Assembly: GCF_900114355.1 (NCBI RefSeq)
Contig: NZ_FOSS01000006.1
Coordinates: forward strand, 186,001 to 250,000
Direction of reading: 5' to 3'
DNA from: Lysobacter sp. cf310
GTDB lineage: Bacteria; Pseudomonadota; Gammaproteobacteria; Xanthomonadales; Xanthomonadaceae
Length of the DNA stretch: 64,000 bases
The notes below the pieces were generated by a model that saw nothing but the letters and a program-made list of their open reading frames with translations, was not told the DNA's origin and searched no databases. Shown one piece after another: positions 53,878 through 64,000 of this stretch (its first letter is position 1; every line of letters starts with the position of its first letter). Both the position numbers and the translations under genes were made by a program.

Positions 53878-54429
53878 ATGTACTCCCGCAGCAGCGAACC
53901 CGTCCGTTTCGAGCGCGATTGCGCCGTCGTCCTCGTGCCGCAGGGCGAGCAGGTGACCCTGCCCGCCGGCAGCGTCGGCTATATCACCCAGGCCCTGGGC
54001 GGCAGCTACACCGTCTTCGTCGAAGGCAATCTGTTCCGGATCTCGGGCAAGGACGCCGACGCGATCGGCAAGGAACCGCCCGAACCGCTGGAACTGCCCG
54101 AAGGCGCCGACGACGAGGCGGTCGAGCAACTGGTGTGGAAGCAGCTGCGCACCTGCTTCGATCCCGAAATCCCGATCAACGTGGTCGACCTCGGCCTGGT
54201 CTACGAAGCCCAGATCAAGCACCGCGACGACGGCCAGCGCCTGGTCGAAGTGCGCATGACCCTGACCGCGCCCGGCTGCGGCATGGGCGACATCCTGATC
54301 GACGACGTGCGCAGCAAGCTGGAAATGATCCCGACCGTGGCCGAGGCCGACGTCGAGCTGGTGTTCGACCCGCCGTGGGGGCGCCACATGATGTCCGAGG
54401 CCGCGCGCCTGGAAACCGGGATGTTCTGA
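53878..54429 (+). CDS. sufT: Putative Fe-S cluster assembly protein SufT
   Basis: Protein of 183 residues. An N-terminal beta-rich region (VPQGEQVTLPAGSVGYITQA, LGGSYTVFVEGNLFRI) is followed by a DUF59/MIP18 domain: LRTCFDPEIPINVVDLGLVY, VRMTLTAPGCGMGDILIDDV and VELVFDPPWGRHMMSE. The conserved cysteines are in RTCFDPE and APGCGMG. SufT helps maturation of Fe-S proteins. No suf operon lies beside it in this window. Confidence 0.92.
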   Translation: MYSRSSEPVRFERDCAVVLVPQGEQVTLPAGSVGYITQALGGSYTVFVEGNLFRISGKDADAIGKEPPEPLELPEGADDEAVEQLVWKQLRTCFDPEIPINVVDLGLVYEAQIKHRDDGQRLVEVRMTLTAPGCGMGDILIDDVRSKLEMIPTVAEADVELVFDPPWGRHMMSEAARLETGMF

Positions 54430-54905
54430 GCCGGCGGCATTCGCCGCGGTATGCACACGCATGACCACACTTTCTGTGCATGCGAGAAATATCCATTTCA
54501 GAAAATGCAGCTTGGTTCACGGTTTACGCCGGTTGGAACCGTTTTAGGCGCATGGACGAGGCTTGCCCGCCTACCTAGGTTGTGGATCGCGGCCCTGCGA
54601 ACGCAGCGGTCGTGAATCCCGTTCTGCCTTCGCATCACGACGCTGAGCAACGCGCAGGCAAAGCGGTTACCTGCCGCACACGCGGCCTTCGAAACACGGG
54701 CTCTTAGAACGTAGCTGCCGCGAACGCGCTGCCGGCATCCGCTTGGAACGAGCGGATCCGTAGCGTGCTGCTGTCCGGTGCAAGGCCGATGCCCGCTGCG
54801 ATGCGGCGCGTCGGCGCGCGTGGAGCGGGACGCCGCTCGTCGCAATTGCACCGTCGGCGCAATCCGCCGCTGCCGACCGGGCCCGCTCACTACAAGGACA
54901 TGTGA
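54430..54905. promoter_or_regulatory. Upstream region of the first S8 protease
   Basis: 476 bases with no gene. A patch at about 54471-54509 (TTTCTGTGCATGCGAGAAAT, then CCATTTCAGAAAATGC) resembles the A+T-rich island upstream of the next two protease genes. It lies about 400 bases before the start codon, further than in those genes. The remainder shows no reading frame or terminator. Confidence 0.45.
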
Positions 54906-56738
54906 ATGAATCGTCGTATCTTGTCGGTAACCATCGGCGCCTCGCTGGTATGCGCCGCGCTCCCGGGTCTGGCCGCGGAACTGTTGACGGTCGAGAGGCC
55001 GATCGAAGGCCGCTACATCGTCGTGCTGAAAGAGCCGGCCACCGGGCCGTCGGCGCGCAGCGCCACTGGCGTGACCATGGCCCAGGTGCCTTCGGTCGCG
55101 CGCAGCATGGCCACCCAGCATCGCGCCAAGCTGCTGCGCAGCTACCAGCACGCGCTGCGCGGCTTCGTGGTCGACGCCGACGACGCCGCGCTGGCGCAGC
55201 TGCTGAAGGATCCGCGCGTGGCCTATGTCGAGGAAGACGGTATCGGCTCGATCTACGCCACCCAGAACAATGCGACCTGGGGCATCGATCGCGTCGACCA
55301 GCGCAATCTGCCGCTCAGCACCACCTACACCTACGACACCGACGCCACCGGCGTTCACGCCTACATCCTCGACACCGGCGTGCGCGCGGACCACACCGAA
55401 TTCAGCGGGCGCATGGGCAACGGGTTCTCGGTCAGGCCGGGCGATCCCAGCACCAACGACTGCCACGGTCACGGCACCCACGTGGCCGGCACCGTCGCCG
55501 GCACCACCTGGGGCGTCGCCAAGAAGGCCACCGTGCATCCGATCCGTGTCTTCGACTGCACCGGCAATGCGCAAACCTCGGAGGCCATCGCGGCTATCGA
55601 CTGGGTGACGGCCAATCACGTCAAACCCGCGGTGGCCAACATGAGCTTCGGTTACCCGGGCTCCACCGCCATAGACACCTCGATCACCAACATGCTCAAC
55701 GCCGGTGTGGTGGTCGTGGCTGCGTCGGGCAATAGCAACGACGATGCCTGTTCGGGGTCGCCGCGGCGGGTGCCGCGGGCGCTGACCGTCGCCGCCACCG
55801 ACCGCAACGACGCGCGCTCGCTTTGGCCCAGCGGCCAGGCGCCCGGCTGGGGCAGCTGCGTGGATCTGTTCGGACCCGGCAGCGACATCGTCTCGGCCGG
55901 CATCAGCGGGTCGAGCTCCACGGCCACCATGAGCGGCACCTCGATGGCCACTCCGCACGTGGCCGGCGTCGTCGCGCTGTACCTGTCCACGCACCCCTCG
56001 GCCACGCCGGACGAAGTGCACGCGGCGATCATGAACAACGCCACGGCCGGCAAGGTCACCGGCAACCTGCGCGGATCGCCGAACTTCATGCTGCACAGCC
56101 TGTTCTCCGGCGGTCCCGGCCCGGGCAACCAGGCACCGGTGGCCAACTTCACGTCCTCGGCCAGCGGCCTGACGGTGAGCTTCACCGACACGTCCAGCGA
56201 CAGCGACGGCAGCATCGCCTCGCGCAGCTGGAGCTTCGGCGACGGCACCAACTCGACCTCGGCCAATCCCAGCAAGACCTACTCGGCGGCCGGTACCTAC
56301 ACGGTCTCGTTGACGGTCACGGACAACGGCGGCGCCAGCAACACCAAGACCGCCACGGTCACGGTCGGCGGCACCGGCGGTACCCAGACCTACAGCAACA
56401 CCACCGACGTCAACATTCCCGACAACAACGCCACCGGCGCCAGCAGCACCATCACCGTGTCGGGCCGTACCGGCAACGCTCCCAGCACGGCCAAGGTGTC
56501 GGTCAATGTGCAGCACCCGTTCCGCGGCGATCTGATCGTGGACCTGATCGCGCCGGACGGCAGCGTCTACAACTTGTTCAACCGCCCCAACACCAACGAC
56601 GGCACCGACCACGTGATCATCACCGACCGCGTGGTCAACCTGAGCAGCGAGCCGCTCAACGGCGCCTGGAAGCTGCGCGTGGCCGACCGCGCGCAGTTCG
56701 ACGTGGGTTACATCAACAGTTGGAGCGTCACGTTCTGA
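54906..56738 (+). CDS. Secreted S8 subtilase with PKD and P-proprotein domains (1)
   Basis: Preproprotein of 610 residues. Signal peptide 1-23, I9 inhibitor prodomain about 30-115 (GRYIVVLKEP, AYVEEDG), then a proteinase K/aqualysin-like S8 catalytic domain with Asp156 (YILDTGV), His189 (CHGHGTHVAG) and Ser346 (GTSMATPHVAG). A PKD domain runs from about 408 to 490 (NQAPVANFTSSASGL, SFGDGTNS, GTYTVSLTVTD) and a P-proprotein domain to the end (HPFRGDLIVDLIAPDGSVYN, LNGAWKLRVADRA). It is exported and self-processed; the C-terminal domains probably aid folding, secretion or substrate contact. It is first in a row of four related genes and ends at a strong terminator. Confidence 0.95.
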   Translation: MNRRILSVTIGASLVCAALPGLAAELLTVERPIEGRYIVVLKEPATGPSARSATGVTMAQVPSVARSMATQHRAKLLRSYQHALRGFVVDADDAALAQLLKDPRVAYVEEDGIGSIYATQNNATWGIDRVDQRNLPLSTTYTYDTDATGVHAYILDTGVRADHTEFSGRMGNGFSVRPGDPSTNDCHGHGTHVAGTVAGTTWGVAKKATVHPIRVFDCTGNAQTSEAIAAIDWVTANHVKPAVANMSFGYPGSTAIDTSITNMLNAGVVVVAASGNSNDDACSGSPRRVPRALTVAATDRNDARSLWPSGQAPGWGSCVDLFGPGSDIVSAGISGSSSTATMSGTSMATPHVAGVVALYLSTHPSATPDEVHAAIMNNATAGKVTGNLRGSPNFMLHSLFSGGPGPGNQAPVANFTSSASGLTVSFTDTSSDSDGSIASRSWSFGDGTNSTSANPSKTYSAAGTYTVSLTVTDNGGASNTKTATVTVGGTGGTQTYSNTTDVNIPDNNATGASSTITVSGRTGNAPSTAKVSVNVQHPFRGDLIVDLIAPDGSVYNLFNRPNTNDGTDHVIITDRVVNLSSEPLNGAWKLRVADRAQFDVGYINSWSVTF

Positions 56739-56771
56739 TCGGCGCCTAGATCCGAGCAGTGCGCTTCGTCT

Positions 56772-56803
56772 CGAAACCCCGGCTCAGGCCGGGGTTTCGT
56801 TTT
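56772..56803 (+). terminator. Rho-independent terminator after S8 protease 1
   Basis: CGAAACCCCGGC TCAG GCCGGGGTTTCG followed by TTTT, a perfect 12-bp stem. The whole stretch from the stop codon through the hairpin is nearly repeated after protease 2. Confidence 0.92.
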
Positions 56804-57056
56804 CCGGGGTCCCTGCACCCGCGTGCCGGGGATGCTGCGAACCTTGCTGAGCCGATGGCGCCCGCCTTGTGCGCCGGCCGGCGAGGGGGTGGTTGCCCGC
56901 GTCCGGCTCGTCGCGGGGAGGGGGCGGTACAGCGTCGTCTGTGCAGCGGCCAGTTTGCTGAATGGAAAACAGTGTTGGGCCGTCCGGACGGCGTCCAGGA
57001 GCACGCGAGGGCGCGCTCGGCGGGGCAGCCGCCGATGCTGGGAAATCGTCGTGCAT

Positions 57057-57400
57057 AGGGTGTTTTCAGCGAAAATCGTTGCCGGACCGCGGGGCCTCGA
57101 TCCGCCGCTCGCCCTCGATTTCGGCCTCGTCGCGCAGCCCTACGCACAAAGTGTGACTTCTTTGAGCGACGAAAATTTTCAATTTTCGAAAATGCGATAG
57201 ATATCGCATTTTTGGCCGCAATCGGCCCTGGCCGTCAGGCGTTTCCCTCAGATCCGACTCGTAGTTTGGCCCACGGTTCAGGCATCTCGATGCCTCCGCC
57301 CTCGTCCGGCCCGCGAGCGACGCAGCGCTTTCGCACTCGGTACGGACAGCCATAACCGCTTAGCGGCCCATTGCGTTTCATTTCCGGGGATACGAAAACG
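57057..57400 (+). repeat. Duplicated upstream/leader segment, copy A
   Basis: About 344 bases ahead of protease 2, homologous along its length to copy B at 59787-60127 ahead of protease 3. The match is close to exact in islands (GTGTGACTTCTTTGAG; GTTTCCCTC then GATCCGACTCGTAGTTTGG; CAGGCATCTCGATGCC; TAGCGGCCCATTGCGTTTCA) and looser between them. Confidence 0.85.
57191..57213. promoter_or_regulatory. Perfect 8-bp inverted repeat upstream of S8 protease 2
   Basis: AATGCGAT AGAT ATCGCATT, followed by TTTTT. It could be an operator or a weak attenuator in the leader. The corresponding place in copy B (ATGTGACGTAAGCCACGT) is not a matching palindrome, so it is not conserved in the duplicate. Confidence 0.45.
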
Positions 57401-59491
57401 ATGTCGAATTCCAACAGCAATCTACGCGTACATGTACTGGCGGCGGCGACCGCGCTGGCTTTGACCGCGATGGCCTCACCGGCCGTCGCCGGCCAGGCCC
57501 ATTTCGCCGGACTCAAAGCCGGCGGCAGCTACAGCCGCTTCATCGTGAAATACAAGGACGACTCGTCCCCGGCCGCCAGCAGCGCCGCGTTGAGCACGTC
57601 CCTCAGCAATATGGCGGCGCGCACGATCCTGCCCGCCGCCTCCAAGGGCAAGCGCATCGGCCTGAAGCAAGTGCGTCGTATGCTGATGCCAGGCGCCAGC
57701 GTGATCGCCTCCGATCAGGAGCTGAACCACGAAGAGGCCGCGGCGCTGATGCGCCAGATCGCAGCCGATCCGAACGTCCAGTTCGTGCAGGTGGACGGCA
57801 AGAAACGCGCTCTGGCGATCCCCAACGATCCGAATTTCGGCCAGCAGTGGCATTACGCCGATAGCGCCGTCGGTATTCGTGCGCCGACGGCGTGGAACAC
57901 CAGCACCGGCAGTGGCGTCGTGGTGGCGGTAATCGACAGCGGCATCATTTCGCACAACGATCTCAATGCCAACATCCTGCCCGGCTACGACATGGTCACC
58001 TCGACCACCGGCGGTTCCAGGCAGGCGTGCGCGGCGGTCGGCGCTCAGACGGGTTGCGGCAAGTCGGACGATGGCAACGGTCGCGATGCGGATCCCACGG
58101 ACAGTTCGGTGGCAGGCACGGGCGCGCACGGCACCCACGTGGCCGGTACCATCGCCGCGGTGACCAACAACGGTATCGGCGTGGCGGGTGTGGCCTACGG
58201 CGCCAAGGTCGTCCCGATTCGCGTGCTTGGCAATCAGGGTTTCGGCGACGATTCCGACATCGTCGACGCGATCACCTGGGCTTCGGGCGATACCGTCGCC
58301 GGTGTTCCGGCAAATGCGAATCCGGCCAAAATCATCAACATGTCGCTGGGCGGGGCGGCGGAAGGCTCCTGCGCCAACGCGGCCCCGGCCTACAAGGCGG
58401 CGATCGACAGGGCCATTGCCAAGGGCTCGGTCGTCATCGCAGCCGCGGGCAACGACAACATCGACATCGTCAACGGCAATTTCAATGGCGTAATCGTCGA
58501 CAGCATACCGGCCAGCTGCGACGGCGTGATCTCGGTCGCCGCCAGCAACAAGAGCGGCTCGCGCTCGAGCTTCTCCAGCTGGGGCGCCACCATCGATATC
58601 ACCGCGCCCGGCGGCGAGAACGTCAGCGGCGGGGGCGTGCTTTCGACCGTGCCCACCAATGCCTACGACGGTTACGCGGGCACGTCGATGGCGGCTCCGC
58701 ACGCCTCCGGCGTCGCGGCGCTGGTCGTCGCCGCTTCGGCGACGACCATGACGCCGGTTCAGATCGAGCAGGTCCTGGAAGGCACCGCTCGCCCGATCGT
58801 CCCCAGCAAGTGCAGCGGCGGTTGCGGCGCCGGCATCATCGACGCGGCGGCGGCCGTGGCCGCGGTCAGCGGCGGCACGCCGGGCAATCAGGCGCCGGTG
58901 GCCAACTTCACCTCCTCGGCCAGCGGCCTGACGGTGAGCTTCACCGACACGTCCAGCGACAGCGACGGCAGCATCGCCTCGCGCAGCTGGAGCTTCGGCG
59001 ACGGCACCAACTCGACCTCGGCCAATCCCAGCAAGACCTACTCGGCGGCCGGTACCTACACGGTCTCGTTGACGGTCACGGACAACGGCGGCGCCAGCCA
59101 CACCAAGACCAGCTCGGTCACGGTGTCGTCCTCCTCCAGCAATGTGCGCCAGACCTACACCAACAGCGGCGACTACACCATCGTCGATAACGGCGCGGCG
59201 GTGGAAAGCCCGATCACGGTGTCCGGTCGCACCGGCAACGCGCCGTCGGATACCTCGTTGGCGGTGAACATCGTGCACACCTACCGCGGCGATCTGATCG
59301 TGGACCTGATCGCACCGGACGGTTCGGCCTACAACCTCGCCAACCGCGCGGGCAGTTCCGGTGGCATCAACAAGACCATCACCGTGAGCGCCCTGACCAG
59401 CGAGGCGCTCAACGGCACCTGGAAGCTGCGTGTGCGCGACGCCGCCGCGAACGATGTGGGTTACATCAACAGCTGGAGCATCACGTTCTGA
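57401..59491 (+). CDS. Secreted S8 subtilase with PKD and P-proprotein domains (2)
   Basis: Preproprotein of 696 residues from ATG 57401 (MSNSNSNLRVHV); a TTG ten codons upstream is in frame but less likely. Signal peptide to about residue 27, prodomain to about 140, then a long-form bacterial subtilase with Asp179 (VVAVIDSGI), His243 (AHGTHVAG), the oxyanion Asn in AAAGNDN, and Ser429 (GTSMAAPHASG). PKD starts at residue 496 and the P domain at about 580 (HTYRGDLIVDLIAPDG). A secreted general protease is the natural role. Its catalytic part resembles protease 3 and is clearly different from protease 1, whereas its PKD DNA is nearly that of both. Confidence 0.95.
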   Translation: MSNSNSNLRVHVLAAATALALTAMASPAVAGQAHFAGLKAGGSYSRFIVKYKDDSSPAASSAALSTSLSNMAARTILPAASKGKRIGLKQVRRMLMPGASVIASDQELNHEEAAALMRQIAADPNVQFVQVDGKKRALAIPNDPNFGQQWHYADSAVGIRAPTAWNTSTGSGVVVAVIDSGIISHNDLNANILPGYDMVTSTTGGSRQACAAVGAQTGCGKSDDGNGRDADPTDSSVAGTGAHGTHVAGTIAAVTNNGIGVAGVAYGAKVVPIRVLGNQGFGDDSDIVDAITWASGDTVAGVPANANPAKIINMSLGGAAEGSCANAAPAYKAAIDRAIAKGSVVIAAAGNDNIDIVNGNFNGVIVDSIPASCDGVISVAASNKSGSRSSFSSWGATIDITAPGGENVSGGGVLSTVPTNAYDGYAGTSMAAPHASGVAALVVAASATTMTPVQIEQVLEGTARPIVPSKCSGGCGAGIIDAAAAVAAVSGGTPGNQAPVANFTSSASGLTVSFTDTSSDSDGSIASRSWSFGDGTNSTSANPSKTYSAAGTYTVSLTVTDNGGASHTKTSSVTVSSSSSNVRQTYTNSGDYTIVDNGAAVESPITVSGRTGNAPSDTSLAVNIVHTYRGDLIVDLIAPDGSAYNLANRAGSSGGINKTITVSALTSEALNGTWKLRVRDAAANDVGYINSWSITF
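58886..59491 (+). repeat. Near-identical PKD + P-domain coding segment, copy in protease 2
   Basis: About 606 bases nearly identical to 61628-62233 in protease 3, including silent positions; only scattered single changes are seen (for example AGCGCCCTG against AGCACCCTG). The first 215 bases are also nearly identical to 56127-56345 in protease 1. Confidence 0.9.
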
Positions 59492-59524
59492 TCGGCGCCT
59501 AGATCCGAGCAGTGCGCTTCGTTT

Positions 59525-59557
59525 CGAGACCCCGGCTCATGCCGGGGTTTCGTTTTT
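59525..59557 (+). terminator. Rho-independent terminator after S8 protease 2
   Basis: CGAGACCCCGGC TCAT GCCGGGGTTTCG followed by TTTTTG. It differs from the protease 1 terminator by only a few bases, as does the sequence between stop codon and hairpin. Confidence 0.92.
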
Positions 59558-59786
59558 GAGGCCGCAGGCGTCGGTCAGGCAGGAGGCGGCGGGCCGTGGC
59601 GGGCATCCAGACCCTGGCGGCGAGGGGTGGGGCCTGGCGTCGGCTTGGGACCTGCGCAGCCCCACCTTGTGTCGGCATATTTTTCGTATTTGAAAATGCG
59701 GCAAGCCCTGGCAACGCCTCCCGAAGCGCGTTTCCGGTTCGGCTTCGGCAAGCCGGCGATCAGCGCTGGAAGATCGCCTAAGGTAG

Positions 59787-60127
59787 GGTATTTACAGGGG
59801 AAACCGTTGCGTGACGGCGGTCAGTCGATGCGCCGGTCGCCTTGTGATTTCGCTTGCTGGCGCATCGCTACGCACGAAGTGTGACTTCTTTGAGTAGCAG
59901 AAAATTTCAATTTACGAAAATGTGACGTAAGCCACGTTTACGACCGCAATCCGTCCTGGTCAGCAGGCGTTTCCCTCGGATCCGACTCGTAGTTTGGCCC
60001 ACGGCCCAGGCATCTCGATGCCTTCGCCCTGGTCCAGCCCGCGAGCGATGCAGGTTCCCGCTCCTGGTTCGGACCGCCATAGCCGCCTAGCGGCCCATTG
60101 CGTTTCACATCCGGGGATATGAAAACG
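59787..60127 (+). repeat. Duplicated upstream/leader segment, copy B
   Basis: About 341 bases ahead of protease 3, homologous to copy A (57057-57400). The end, TAGCGGCCCATTGCGTTTCA through CCGGGGATA to the ATG, is almost unchanged, so ribosome site and start context are conserved too. Confidence 0.85.
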
Positions 60128-62233
60128 ATGTCGAATACCAACAGCAAACTGCGCGTACACGTACTGGCGGCCGCGACGGCCGTTGCGCTGGCCGCATTGG
60201 CCGCGCCCGCCTTCGCCGGCCAAGCCTATGTCGCCGACCTCAAGGCCGACGGCCAGTACGGTCGTTTCATGATCAAGTACAAGAACAGCAGCGCGCCGAC
60301 CACCAGCACGGCCGCGCTCGCTTCCTCTTTGAACACCGCTGCATCGCGCACCCTGATGCCGGCCGGCTCCAAGGGCAAGCGTGTGGGTCTGAAGCATCTG
60401 CGCCGCATGGCGCTGGGCGCCGATGTCATCACCAGCGACACTACTTTGAACGGCGATGAAGCCGCTGCGCTGATCCGCCAGCTCGCCGCCGACCCGAACG
60501 TGGAGTGGGTGCAGTCCGACTTCGTCGTGCACGCGTTGGCGGTGCCGAACGACCCGCTGTACTCCAGTCAGTGGCACTACGCCGACGATGCCGTCGGCAT
60601 CCGCGCTCCGGTTGCCTGGAACACCAGCACCGGCACCGGCGTGGTGGTGGCCGTGATCGACAGCGGCATCCTGCCGCATAGCGATCTGGACGCCAACATC
60701 CTGCCGGGCTACGACATGATCAGCACCACCACGGGGCTGGGATTCGCCAGTTGCGGAACCACCAGCACCTGCGGCGCATCCGATGACGGCAACGGTCGCG
60801 ATTCAGACCCTAACGATGCTTCCAATGTCGTGCACGGCACACATGTGGCCGGCACCGTCGCCGCCGTGGCCAACAATAGCCTGGGCTTGGCCGGTGTGGC
60901 TTACAACGCCAAGGTGGTTCCGATTCGAGTGCTGGGCCGGGACGGCAGTGGTGGTGGCTCCGACATCATCGATGCCATCACCTGGGCCTCCGGCGGCACG
61001 GTGTCCGGCGTGCCGGCCAACGCCAACCCCGCTGAAGTGATCAATCTGTCCCTGGGCGGCACGCGCGCCTGCGGCCCGGCCGAGCAGGCCGCCATCAACG
61101 CCGCGGTGGCCCGCGGCTCGGTGGTGATCGCCGCCGCAGGCAACTTCAACAACGACGTCGCCAACAACGCGCCGGCCAGCTGCAACAACGTGATCAGCGT
61201 CGGCGCCAGCGATCGCGGCGGTCGCCGCGCGTATTACTCGAGCTATGGCGCTACCCTCGATGTGACCGCGCCGGGTGGCGAAGTCTGCTCGCCGTCGACG
61301 GAACATTTGCCGCTTGGGCAGAGCCCTAGGGGCGCATGCGTCCAGCCGGTCGTCGTCAACTCCGCCAATGCCGTGTGGTCGACGATCGAGGGCAACGGCT
61401 ATGCCGGCGGCGAATGGCAGGGCACGTCGATGGCCGCACCGCATGTGGCCGGTGTGGCCGCATTGATCCAGGCGGCGTCCGCAACGCCGAAGACGCCGGC
61501 GCAGATCGAGCAGATCCTGGAAAGCACGGCGCGTCCGATCGCGGCGGCGAATTGTCCGGGCGGTTGCGGCGCGGGCTTGATCGACGCCGCGGCGGCTGTA
61601 GCCGCGGTCAGCGGCGGCACGCCGGGCAACCAGGCGCCGGTGGCCAACTTCACCTCCTCGGCCAGCGGCCTGACGGTGAGCTTCACCGACACCTCCAGCG
61701 ACAGCGACGGCAGCATCGCCTCGCGTAGCTGGAGCTTCGGCGACGGCACCAACTCGACCTCGGCCAATCCCAGCAAGACCTACTCGGCGGCCGGCACCTA
61801 CACGGTCTCGTTGACGGTCACGGACAACGGCGGCGCCAGCCACACCAAGACCAGTTCGGTCACGGTGTCGTCCTCCTCCAGCAACGTGCGCCAGACCTAC
61901 ACCAACAGCGGCGACTACACCATCGTCGATAACGGCGCGGCGGTGGAAAGCCCGATCACGGTGTCCGGTCGCACCGGCAACGCGCCGTCGGATACCTCGC
62001 TGGCGGTGAACATCGTGCACACCTACCGCGGCGATCTGATCGTGGACCTGATCGCACCGGACGGTTCGGCCTACAACCTCGCCAACCGCGCCGGCAGTTC
62101 CGGTGGCATCAACAAGACCATCACCGTGAGCACCCTGACCAGCGAGGCGCTCAACGGCACCTGGAAGCTACGGGTGCGCGATGCGGCCGCGGACGACGTG
62201 GGCTACATCAACAGCTGGAGCATCACGTTCTGA
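60128..62233 (+). CDS. Secreted S8 subtilase with PKD and P-proprotein domains (3)
   Basis: Preproprotein of 701 residues from ATG 60128 (MSNTNSKLRVHV). The layout is the same as protease 2: signal peptide to about 27, prodomain, catalytic domain with Asp178 (VVAVIDSGI), His236 (VHGTHVAG) and Ser434 (GTSMAAPHVAG), PKD from residue 501, P domain to the end. A loop insert near residues 380-405 (CSPSTEHLPLGQSPRGACV) is absent from protease 2 and may be closed by a disulfide, changing specificity. No strong T-tract terminator follows, only a GC-rich hairpin near 62256-62290. Confidence 0.95.
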   Translation: MSNTNSKLRVHVLAAATAVALAALAAPAFAGQAYVADLKADGQYGRFMIKYKNSSAPTTSTAALASSLNTAASRTLMPAGSKGKRVGLKHLRRMALGADVITSDTTLNGDEAAALIRQLAADPNVEWVQSDFVVHALAVPNDPLYSSQWHYADDAVGIRAPVAWNTSTGTGVVVAVIDSGILPHSDLDANILPGYDMISTTTGLGFASCGTTSTCGASDDGNGRDSDPNDASNVVHGTHVAGTVAAVANNSLGLAGVAYNAKVVPIRVLGRDGSGGGSDIIDAITWASGGTVSGVPANANPAEVINLSLGGTRACGPAEQAAINAAVARGSVVIAAAGNFNNDVANNAPASCNNVISVGASDRGGRRAYYSSYGATLDVTAPGGEVCSPSTEHLPLGQSPRGACVQPVVVNSANAVWSTIEGNGYAGGEWQGTSMAAPHVAGVAALIQAASATPKTPAQIEQILESTARPIAAANCPGGCGAGLIDAAAAVAAVSGGTPGNQAPVANFTSSASGLTVSFTDTSSDSDGSIASRSWSFGDGTNSTSANPSKTYSAAGTYTVSLTVTDNGGASHTKTSSVTVSSSSSNVRQTYTNSGDYTIVDNGAAVESPITVSGRTGNAPSDTSLAVNIVHTYRGDLIVDLIAPDGSAYNLANRAGSSGGINKTITVSTLTSEALNGTWKLRVRDAAADDVGYINSWSITF
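61628..62233 (+). repeat. Near-identical PKD + P-domain coding segment, copy in protease 3
   Basis: Counterpart of 58886-59491. The sharp change from divergent catalytic DNA to near-identity comes around the codons for AVSGGTPGNQAPV. Confidence 0.9.
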
Positions 62234-62449
62234 TCCTGGCCGCATGAGTGGGCAGCGCACGTCCCGGTTACGGCCGGGCGTGCGTTCGCGGACACGGTCG
62301 CCGCGCGGCTCGGACCGCGCGGCACCGAGCGCGGGTCGTCCATCGCATCGCGGCAACTCCAATAGAGGCTTGCGCCGTCTATCAGGCGCGTCGGCGTCGG
62401 CCGTTGCCGCTCGTTCCGAATCGAATACATCTACATTTAGGGGCAGGGA

Positions 62450-64000
<1,551 letters not shown>

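What the first reader, a model, noticed from the sequence alone, without database searches (positions are those of the whole stretch)
57057..60127. Conserved ~340-nt upstream/leader element duplicated before proteases 2 and 3
Noncoding DNA is normally the first to diverge after duplication, yet these two segments keep near-perfect islands: GTGTGACTTCTTTGAG, an A+T box, GATCCGACTCGTAGTTTGGC, a GGCAT-CTCG-ATGCC hairpin and the sequence up to the ATG. The distance from the A+T island to the start codon is also kept at about 210 nt. This fits a shared promoter plus a structured 5' untranslated RNA, perhaps a previously undescribed cis-regulatory leader for extracellular proteases.
Basis: partly seen in the sequence, partly recalled or inferred. 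Interest (0 to 1): 0.72.

Follow-up and report, generated by a model that had tools for sequence, protein, structure and literature searches.

The report
Shared promoter and leader for proteases
Two neighbouring protein-digesting enzyme genes in a Lysobacter bacterium share a conserved start region, with a likely binding site for a global regulator at a fixed distance from the promoter and then a structured RNA leader, and the same layout precedes many other secreted protease genes, even unrelated kinds, in related bacteria.

Summary
The duplicated leader is real (266 nt, 83% identical; two copies in this genome by BLAST) and reads as a promoter plus 5' UTR. The least conserved piece, the A+T box, is a CRP/Clp-type palindrome, 61 nt from a -10-like TAGTTT. 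In 36 nonredundant upstream regions of related genes with a good Clp site, exact TAGCGT occurs 29 times: 27 at 61-63 nt, 2 at 95. A Clp-like protein is encoded. The ~127-nt leader has a hairpin near the predicted 5' end and one just before the ribosome-binding site; both are positionally enriched in 45 leaders, and two paralogue groups show compensatory changes. The window copies themselves show none. A model built from 43 leaders gives 70 matches in 20 congeneric genomes, all before secreted proteases (56 S8, 13 M12B, 1 M4). The full module occurs in at least five other genera; a non-exhaustive scan of 94 genomes across the class matched only the window's own. Most likely: a Clp-activated class-I-type promoter with an mRNA-stabilising, translation-supporting leader. 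Transcription start, Clp binding and RNA function are untested.

The parts
57152..57167 (+). Upstream island (TGTGACTTCTTTGAGC): degenerate Clp-like half-site, 41 bp above the main palindrome, copy 1
   Evidence: 7 of 10 match to TGTGA-N6-TCACA; island of 16 nt identical in copy 2; role inferred
57176..57189 (+). A+T tract just upstream of the Clp palindrome, copy 1 (UP-element-like, inferred)
57190..57211 (+). Clp/CRP-type palindrome AAATGCGATAGATATCGCATTT, copy 1, centre 57200.5
   Evidence: 8 of 10 to TGTGA-N6-TCACA; such sites enriched in 97 related upstream regions and phased to the hexamer
57262..57267 (+). -10-like hexamer TAGTTT, 61 nt from the palindrome centre, copy 1; predicted start of RNA about 57273-57275
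   Evidence: start site is a prediction
57280..57295 (+). P1 hairpin AGGCAT-CTCG-ATGCCT near the predicted 5' end of the RNA, copy 1 (outer pairs 57275-57277 with 57298-57300)
   Evidence: z -2.25 for 57273-57300
57304..57347 (+). P2 long-range stem GTCCG 57304-57308 with CGGAC 57343-57347, copy 1
   Evidence: an analogous long stem in groups A1 and A3
57356..57366 (+). P3 pre-ribosome-site hairpin CCGC-TTA-GCGG, copy 1
57386..57390 (+). Shine-Dalgarno-like GGGGA, copy 1
57401..59491 (+). Protease 2: S8 subtilase, PKD, P-domain (signal peptide by eye)
59880..59895 (+). Upstream island / degenerate Clp-like half-site, copy 2
59905..59917 (+). A+T tract, copy 2
59918..59939 (+). Clp/CRP-type palindrome AAATGTGACGTAAGCCACGTTT, copy 2
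59990..59995 (+). -10-like TAGTTT, 61 nt from palindrome centre, copy 2; predicted start of RNA about 60001-60003
60008..60023 (+). P1 hairpin AGGCAT-CTCG-ATGCCT, copy 2
   Evidence: z -1.08 for 60001-60027
60031..60075 (+). P2 stem GGTCC 60031-60035 with GGACC 60071-60075, copy 2
60082..60094 (+). P3 hairpin GCCGC-CTA-GCGGC, copy 2
60113..60117 (+). Shine-Dalgarno-like GGGGA, copy 2
60128..62233 (+). Protease 3: S8 subtilase, PKD, P-domain (signal peptide by eye)

Best explanation
Each copy is a Clp-activated, class-I-type promoter followed by a structured 5' leader of about 127 nt. Clp (the CRP-like, c-di-GMP-responsive regulator of Xanthomonads) binds the palindrome about 73 bp upstream of the start, at a fixed distance from the -10, and recruits polymerase to a TAGCGT/TAGTTT-type -10 element with a weak -35. 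The new RNA begins at or within a few bases of a stem-loop (P1), which would block 5'-end-dependent decay. A second, sequence-conserved GCCGC/GCGGC stem-loop (P3) lies just upstream of the ribosome-binding site and would keep that site free of the G+C-rich leader. The outcome is abundant, long-lived, well-translated mRNA for secreted proteases when Clp is active. Shown by sequence comparison: the operator-like palindrome, its fixed phasing to the hexamer, a Clp-like protein in the genome, positional enrichment of P1 and P3, compensatory change in two paralogue groups, and presence ahead of secreted protease genes only, among the matches examined. Inferred: Clp binding, transcription start, the stabilising role of P1, the insulating role of P3.
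For: Clp sites: of 97 upstream regions (near-duplicates included) from 20 genomes, 49 hold a match of 8+/10 (9.0 expected from order-1 Markov sequences), 19 of 9+ (0.6), 6 of 10 (0.0); 46 of the 49 lie at -173 to -249. Phasing: of 36 nonredundant regions with an 8+/10 site, exact TAGCGT occurs at offset 61-63 (27), 95 (2) and nowhere else in the stretch of up to 465 nt; the two at 95 also have an 8/10 site at 62. Clp-like protein: 386 bits to 3iwz, 'Catabolite activation-like protein'. Hairpins in 45 leaders selected on operator and hexamer: Watson-Crick stems of 6+ centred at hexamer +20 to +29 in 21 (2.4 expected by local shuffling); stems of 5+ with loops 3-5 in the bins starting -40 and -30 of the ATG, 20 and 14 (1.8 and 1.5). 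The 45 nt from the hexamer fold with mean z -1.52, 25 of 45 below -1.5. Covariation score 0.209 vs 0.134 shuffled and 0.258 vs 0.165 (0 of 500 each). Model R1: 70 matches in 20 of 20 genomes, 56 S8, 13 M12B, 1 M4. The Clp site is not in R1, yet 26 of 34 matches outside the training set have 7+/10 at the expected place against 3.4% of 408 control placements. Literature: Clp controls lytic enzymes in L. enzymogenes (PMC5686890, passages).
Against: No transcription start is mapped; the start used is 12 nt from the hexamer by analogy. Window copies: no compensatory pair (0 of 44, three sequences), whole-leader z 0.58 and -0.75, and the -35 region is poor by eye. The folding z-score does not support P3 strongly: mean -0.70 for the window -60 to -16 of the ATG, -0.18 for -50 to -6; P3 rests on the stem count and on conservation. 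A looser P1 measure (G-U pairs, long loops) is met by 42% of shuffled leaders, so P1 rests on the strict measure. P3 hardly varies, so its pairing is little tested. The counts of pairs with two-sided change alone are less decisive (16 and 8 of 500 shuffles reach them). The leaders are paralogues, not independent. 8 of 34 R1 matches outside the training set lack a Clp site at 7+/10, and so do all 5 weak R1 matches in other genera.
Confidence: 0.62

Rival explanations
1. Only the Clp promoter matters. The leader is transcribed spacer kept alike by common ancestry; the hairpins reflect G+C-rich sequence or promoter-proximal constraints.
For: Whole-leader folding energies of the window copies are ordinary; no covariation in the window copies; mean z around P3 is weak; 42% of shuffled leaders pass a loose P1 test.
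Against: Strict hairpin counts peak at two fixed positions of the leader; two groups show compensatory change; P3 pairs at all five positions in 38 of 43 aligned leaders while the middle diverges.
Confidence: 0.17
2. The leader is a true post-transcriptional switch (small-RNA/Hfq target, protein-bound leader or thermometer) acting on protease translation, with P3 as recognition element.
For: P3 stem letters are nearly invariant although its loop varies in length and sequence; hfq deletion lowers extracellular protease activity in L. enzymogenes (PMC4408182, abstract and passages); in window copy 2 the GGGG lies in a predicted small hairpin.
Against: No Rfam match in the leaders; GGA, needed for RsmA/CsrA (recalled), is within 22 nt of the start in only 9 of 43 leaders; no common stem hides the ribosome site in group A3, and only a long-range pairing beside it in A1.
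Confidence: 0.13
3. Leader similarity of the two copies is simply recent gene conversion, as in the C-terminal domains.
For: The PKD/P-domain region of proteases 2 and 3 is 91-92% identical at 4-fold sites, so conversion probably does occur here.
Against: Leader identity is patchy by function (97.5% core, 56% operator, 73% spacer), and the same layout is found in paralogues and other genera whose leaders share little sequence.
Confidence: 0.05
4. P1 is a DNA operator (inverted repeat for a repressor at the start site), not an RNA hairpin.
For: It is an inverted repeat at about +1.
Against: 30 different 5' arms among the 39 of 45 leaders that have a P1 by the looser measure, with loops of 3 to over 20 nt; no shared operator sequence.
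Confidence: 0.03

Closest known systems
Clp (CRP-like protein) dependent promoters of Xanthomonas, e.g. engXCA
   Same: Clp sites upstream of an extracellular enzyme gene; Clp binding directly shown for engXCA (PMC6430473, passages).
   Different: In engXCA one site overlaps the -35, and the start codon lies within 47 nt of the mapped +1 by the legend of Fig. 3; here the site is about 73 bp upstream of the predicted start and the leader is about 127 nt and structured.
Escherichia coli class I CRP promoters
   Same: TGTGA-N6-TCACA site upstream of the -35 at set distances (class definitions recalled).
   Different: Activator is the Clp subgroup, reported to be released from DNA by c-di-GMP in Xanthomonas (PMC5686890, passages); -10 is TAGCGT/TAGTTT, -35 poor.
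Bacillus subtilis aprE (subtilisin) leader with 5' stem-loop
   Same: By its title, a 5' stem-loop plus ribosome binding are important for stability of the aprE leader mRNA (title only, in the reference list of PMC3997798); that aprE encodes a secreted S8 protease is recalled.
   Different: Unrelated sequence and phylum; whether P1 here stabilises is untested.
ompA / papA 5'-terminal stem-loops
   Same: Stem-loop at the 5' end that stabilises mRNA against RNase E-dependent decay (titles only; details recalled).
   Different: Not shown here; additional conserved P3 next to the ribosome site.

Membership tests
CRP/Clp-regulated promoter | TGTGA-N6-TCACA-like palindrome | tested here: met
   8/10 in both window copies; 49 of 97 regions at 8+/10 against 9.0 expected
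CRP/Clp-regulated promoter | cognate regulator encoded in the genome | tested here: met
   one frame over the PF00325 cut-off; best solved relative 3iwz, 386 bits
CRP/Clp-regulated promoter | Clp binds the site and changes transcription | not testable with these tools
   needs EMSA/footprint and a clp deletion
class I CRP-type promoter | site phased at a fixed distance upstream of the -10 | tested here: met
   exact TAGCGT at 61-63 in 27 of 36 regions, otherwise only at 95 in 2; window copies TAGTTT at 61
class I CRP-type promoter | site centre at about -61.5, -71.5, -82.5 relative to mapped +1 | not testable with these tools
   predicted about -73; no mapped start
known Rfam leader or riboswitch family | match above the family gathering score | tested here: not met
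   7 matches up to E 10 in 54400-62600, none in either leader and all below gathering
aprE/ompA-type 5' stabilising stem-loop | stem-loop starting within a few nt of the 5' end | tested here: inconclusive
   P1 5' arm starts hexamer +9 to +19, mode +12, in 39 of 45 by a loose measure; strict positional enrichment 21 of 45; 5' end is only predicted
aprE/ompA-type 5' stabilising stem-loop | lengthens mRNA half-life | not testable with these tools
   needs half-life assay
RsmA/CsrA-controlled leader | GGA motif at the ribosome site | tested here: not met
   GGA within 22 nt of the start in 9 of 43 leaders
RNA thermometer / translation switch | shared stem hiding the ribosome site | tested here: inconclusive
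   not in the A3 consensus, a long-range pairing beside it in A1, partly in A2 and in the window copies

The most novel reading that the evidence does not exclude
A previously undescribed cis-acting leader RNA, defined by a 5'-terminal stem-loop and a nearly sequence-invariant GCCGC/GCGGC stem-loop before the ribosome site, works in Lysobacter and related genera as a portable 'secreted-protease' expression tag. It has been attached to at least three unrelated protease folds (S8, M12B, M4) and couples Clp/c-di-GMP transcription control to a dedicated post-transcriptional control of protease output by an RNA-binding protein or small RNA that recognises P3.
Probability: 0.22. Interest if true: 0.75.

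Novelty: new variant of a known kind. Interest (0 to 1): 0.56.

Why it matters
Lysobacter are biocontrol bacteria known for secreted lytic enzymes; [quoted passage not shown] enzymogenes except for Clp (PMC4408182, passages). A fixed operator-to-hexamer spacing and a shared leader shape give concrete testable sites for each protease gene, would let the direct Clp protease regulon be read from sequence, and provide a candidate high-output leader. If P1/P3 act after transcription, it would be a new leader class.

Tried and rejected
BLAST of the leader DNA in 20 genomes of the genus gave the two window copies, one orthologue (G013) and three weak hits (L006-L008) that I judged by eye to be unrelated G+C-rich sequence. 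An exact 19-mer scan of the genome-contig collection found nothing. A sigma-54 reading of the core was considered by eye and dropped (no call). RsmA control was considered and dropped (9 of 43 with GGA). The other three perfect Clp palindromes of the genome (C2, C6, C12) have no TAGCGT, TAGCTT or TAGTTT at 61-63; one has TAGTCG at 63 and one TAGGGC at 64, so the combination is not a general feature of Clp sites. A description in print was sought in ten literature searches, of which 26, 42, 44, 45, 88, 90 and 94 name Lysobacter; the listings (at most 20 titles each, with starts of abstracts) showed no Lysobacter protease leader or Clp-site map. Most subscription papers are not held, and I did not look up the 2005 clp paper.

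Rows dropped before counts: 28 of 125 protease-related frames (26 with no assignable start, 2 too close to an end of the stretch) before the 97; the 125 come from 41 stretches chosen from a match list that was itself cut, and some matched through the C-terminal domains only; 18 near-duplicates before the 79; 29 of 79 lacking a loose site-plus-hexamer criterion before the 50; 5 of the 50 by hand before the 45; 7 more by hand before the 38, to which 5 from other genera were added for the model.
Full report
WHAT IS THERE. The window is a 64-kb piece of a 4.7-Mb genome (G000:C4:186001-250000). Its genus includes Lysobacter sp. Root916: G013 contig C16 has the same length, 282,261 bases, as NZ_LMJF01000016.1, from which I take the genus. 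Three tandem genes, 54906-56738, 57401-59491 and 60128-62233, encode S8 subtilases with PKD and P domains, with signal peptides by eye. Proteases 2 and 3 are preceded by leaders that align at 83% over 266 nt; no other copy is found in the genome by BLAST, and the 20-mer GATCCGACTCGTAGTTTGGC occurs only twice with up to three mismatches.

IS IT MORE THAN CHANCE OR RECENT DUPLICATION? Four-fold degenerate sites of proteases 2 and 3 are 57, 53 and 50% identical in residues 60-140, 140-300 and 300-480 (n = 30, 68, 72), 68% in the first 60 residues (n = 25), and 91-92% in the PKD/P-domain part (n = 70, 60), which suggests gene conversion there. Against that background the leader is patchy: 57236-57275 97.5%, 57276-57299 87.5%, the last 51 nt before the ATG 90%, but the palindrome region only 56% and the stretch after it 73%. 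A patchwork that follows function argues for selection rather than for conversion of the whole leader.

THE A+T BOX IS A CLP/CRP-TYPE OPERATOR. Copy 1 reads AAATGCGA-tagata-TCGCATTT, copy 2 AAATGTGA-cgtaag-CCACGTTT, and the G013 orthologue AAATGTGA-cgatcg-CCACATTT: three variants of the CRP consensus (recalled). In stretches of 20 congeneric genomes I found 125 frames related to proteases 1-3 by tblastn; 97 had an assignable start and enough upstream DNA. The best TGTGA-N6-TCACA match in 450 nt is 8 or more of 10 in 49 of 97 (9.0 expected from order-1 Markov sequences), 9 or more in 19 (0.6) and 10 in 6 (0.0); 46 of the 49 lie at -173 to -249. In the 36 nonredundant regions whose site reaches 8, exact TAGCGT is found at 61 (4), 62 (8), 63 (15) and 95 (2) nt from the centre, and at no other offset. 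The two regions with offset 95 also hold an 8/10 site at 62. The window copies have TAGTTT at 61. This is the anatomy of a class-I-type activator promoter with a TAGCGT-like -10; the -35 looks weak. The conserved island GTGTGACTTCTTTGAG is a 7/10 Clp-like half-site 41 bp further up, perhaps an auxiliary site (inference). The one frame of the genome over the cut-off of Pfam PF00325 is best matched in the PDB by 3iwz, 'Catabolite activation-like protein', 386 bits; that this entry is X. campestris Clp is recalled. Clp controls lytic enzymes in L. enzymogenes, and in Xanthomonas it is released from promoters by c-di-GMP (PMC5686890, passages). Three other perfect palindromes in the genome lack such a hexamer at that distance.

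THE LEADER RNA. Taking the start 12 nt after the first base of the hexamer, the 50 leaders are 99-195 nt long, 40 of 50 between 110 and 135; the window's are 127 and 126. In 45 of them (5 dropped by hand), selected on operator and hexamer, strict Watson-Crick stems of 6+ cluster at hexamer +20 to +29 (21 of 45, 2.4 expected from shuffles in 30-nt blocks), and stems of 5+ with loops of 3-5 in the 10-nt bins starting -40 and -30 of the ATG (20 and 14, against 1.8 and 1.5; one leader may count in both). The neighbouring bins are low (4 and 0 against 1.8 and 2.5; 3 and 0 against 2.0 and 1.6). Smaller excesses lie at the operator itself (7 and 8 against about 1 at -80 and -70 of the hexamer) and at a few other bins, such as 7 against 2.7 at -90 of the ATG. 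Folding z-scores agree for the 5' hairpin: mean -1.52 for the 45 nt from the hexamer and -1.11 for the window starting at +12; the other hexamer-anchored windows range from -0.57 to +0.25. They give P3 little support: -0.70 for -60 to -16 of the ATG, -0.18 for -50 to -6. P1 arms differ in sequence (30 distinct 5' arms among 39), whereas P3 is nearly invariant in letters with a variable loop (38 of 43 aligned leaders pair at all five positions; L211 lacks the 5' arm). A looser P1 measure is of no use alone, since 42% of shuffles pass it.

COVARIATION. In group A1 (9 leaders) a three-stem structure pairs in 91.6% of cells; 8 of 33 pairs have changes on both sides (16 of 500 shuffles reach that), covariation score 0.209 against 0.134 +/- 0.016 shuffled (0 of 500) and at most 0.096 when slid. 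In group A3 (9 leaders): 91.8%, 6 of 22 (8 of 500), 0.258 against 0.165 (0 of 500), slid at most 0.109. A weak long-range pairing was left out of the A1 structure before counting. Group A2 (11) is too alike: 3 of 34 pairs. The window copies with their G013 orthologue: 0 of 44 pairs; their whole-leader energies are not unusual (z 0.58, -0.75), while the P1 segment is -2.25 and -1.08. The structural case is therefore made by the relatives, not by the two window copies. The structures were derived from the same alignments, which favours them over the slid versions, and shuffles do not allow for relatedness.

WHICH GENES CARRY IT. A pattern for P3 plus GGGGGTT gave 49 matches in 20 genomes against 19 for the reversed control. 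Of 31 loci inspected (the 30 fetched, plus L061), 21 have a long frame starting 4-7 nt after it, and by N-terminal sequence all 21 are secreted proteases; the other 10 have no such frame (one has a 237-aa frame 13 nt on). Pfam confirms eight that are not S8: L085, L092, L106, L111, L112 as M12B and L061, L086, L090 as M4. L085 and L092 have a 7/10 Clp site at offset 62; L061, L086 and L090 have none at a matching distance. A covariance model R1 (43 leaders, only P3 paired, no operator) gives 70 matches at E <= 0.01 in 20 of 20 genomes. The genes behind them are 56 S8, 11 M12B and 1 M4 by catalytic motif; of the two left, one is M12B by Pfam (L111) and one a frame cut by the stretch with a partial M12B match of 26.5 bits, just under the cut-off of 27. 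Of the 34 held matches outside the training set, 26 have a 7+/10 Clp site in the expected place against 3.4% of 408 control placements; many are close relatives of training members. The genome-wide search is not exhaustive (150 candidates scored per genome): it missed the window copies, which score 39.7 and 44.9 bits when searched directly (they are training members). S8, M12B and M4 catalytic domains are unrelated (established knowledge), so the leader travels with, or is recruited to, different proteases; several share the C-terminal PKD or P domain.

HOW FAR IT REACHES. In 28 loci from other genera of the family (a start was assigned on the coding strand in 18), five (L193, L197, L200, L208, L211) show the operator at 8-9/10, TAGCGT at 60-63 and, by eye, a hairpin at the predicted start; four of the five also P3. 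R1 on 48 held outgroup loci gives 10 matches at E <= 0.01, each directly upstream of the protease match: those five, which are training members, and five new ones of 23-31 bits with rough E-values (L120 of Pseudoxanthomonas sp. PXM02, L214, L217, L196, L192). None of the five new ones has a Clp site of 7+/10 at the expected place, and three of five have P3, so they support a leader of this kind without the operator, or are weak matches. A scan for the operator-hexamer module in 23 loci found it only in L115 (Root916, the G013 stretch) and a doubtful case in L121. Across the class, 1 of 94 genomes, the window's own, has a match; at most 32 candidates per genome were scored, and only 2 places were found in the own genome, so this absence is weakly tested. 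No Rfam family matches either leader.

HOW IT MOST LIKELY WORKS. Clp bound about 73 bp upstream of the start activates a weak promoter. The emerging RNA folds P1 at its 5' end, which by analogy with ompA/papA and with the aprE leader of B. subtilis (titles seen in the reference list of PMC3997798) would slow 5'-dependent decay. P3 just upstream of the GGGG ribosome site would stop the G+C-rich leader from pairing with it. Shown: sequence architecture, phasing, conservation, covariation in relatives, gene specificity among the matches seen. Inferred: Clp binding, start site, both RNA roles. The main alternative is that only the promoter matters; the bolder one is a P3-recognising post-transcriptional switch, for which the hfq phenotype on protease activity (PMC4408182, abstract and passages) is a hint but no more.

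VERDICT. Observation confirmed. Known kinds (Clp promoter, 5' stem-loop leader) in a combination and gene specificity that I did not see described in the listings of ten searches of the held library.

Noticed in passing
58841-59488 and about 61583-62230 (protease 1 C-terminal part from about 56120): PKD and P-domain segments of proteases 2 and 3 are 91-92% identical at 4-fold sites against 50-57% in residues 60-480: probable recent gene conversion of the C-terminal domains; protease 1 shares a 300-nt PKD stretch at 83%.
   Followed up: partly
56777-56803 and 59530-59557: Proteases 1 and 2 end in nearly the same intrinsic-terminator-like hairpin (CCCCGGCTCA.GCCGGGG followed by TTTCGTTTT) with a shared stretch after the stop codon.
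   Followed up: no
L047_4543 and L066_6200 upstream regions (also by sequence L048_13845, L049_13981, L068_4122): Two Clp-like palindromes about 33 bp apart, the nearer one at 62 nt from TAGCGT: tandem operators.
   Followed up: partly
L046_16900, L048_10596, L052_10655, L051_13373, L056_13580 upstream regions: A second palindrome of the form TTAGGACnnGTCCTAA, or close to it, lies just upstream of the Clp-like site in a subset of proteases; perhaps a response-regulator operator.
   Followed up: no
L040_15878, L041_16220, L044_14114, L057_4016, L058_7881 upstream regions: A conserved TTTCACGTG(A/G)AAGCGGTTACC element precedes the perfect Clp palindrome of the MSQLSS protease group.
   Followed up: no
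54761-54766: Protease 1 has a TAGCGT 145 nt before its ATG but no good Clp site at the matching distance and, by eye, no P3.
   Followed up: partly
G006:C1:2415355, G006:C1:2412268, G015:C8:40404, G018:C38:5026, G005:C12:234302: Congeneric relatives of the S8 protease matched through one in-frame stop: possible pseudogenes or separate neighbouring frames.
   Followed up: no
L253 (G017:C1:1097030-1097193): An M4 thermolysin-type protease has TAGCGT and P3 in the usual layout but no Clp palindrome at the usual place, suggesting a Clp-independent version of the leader.
   Followed up: partly
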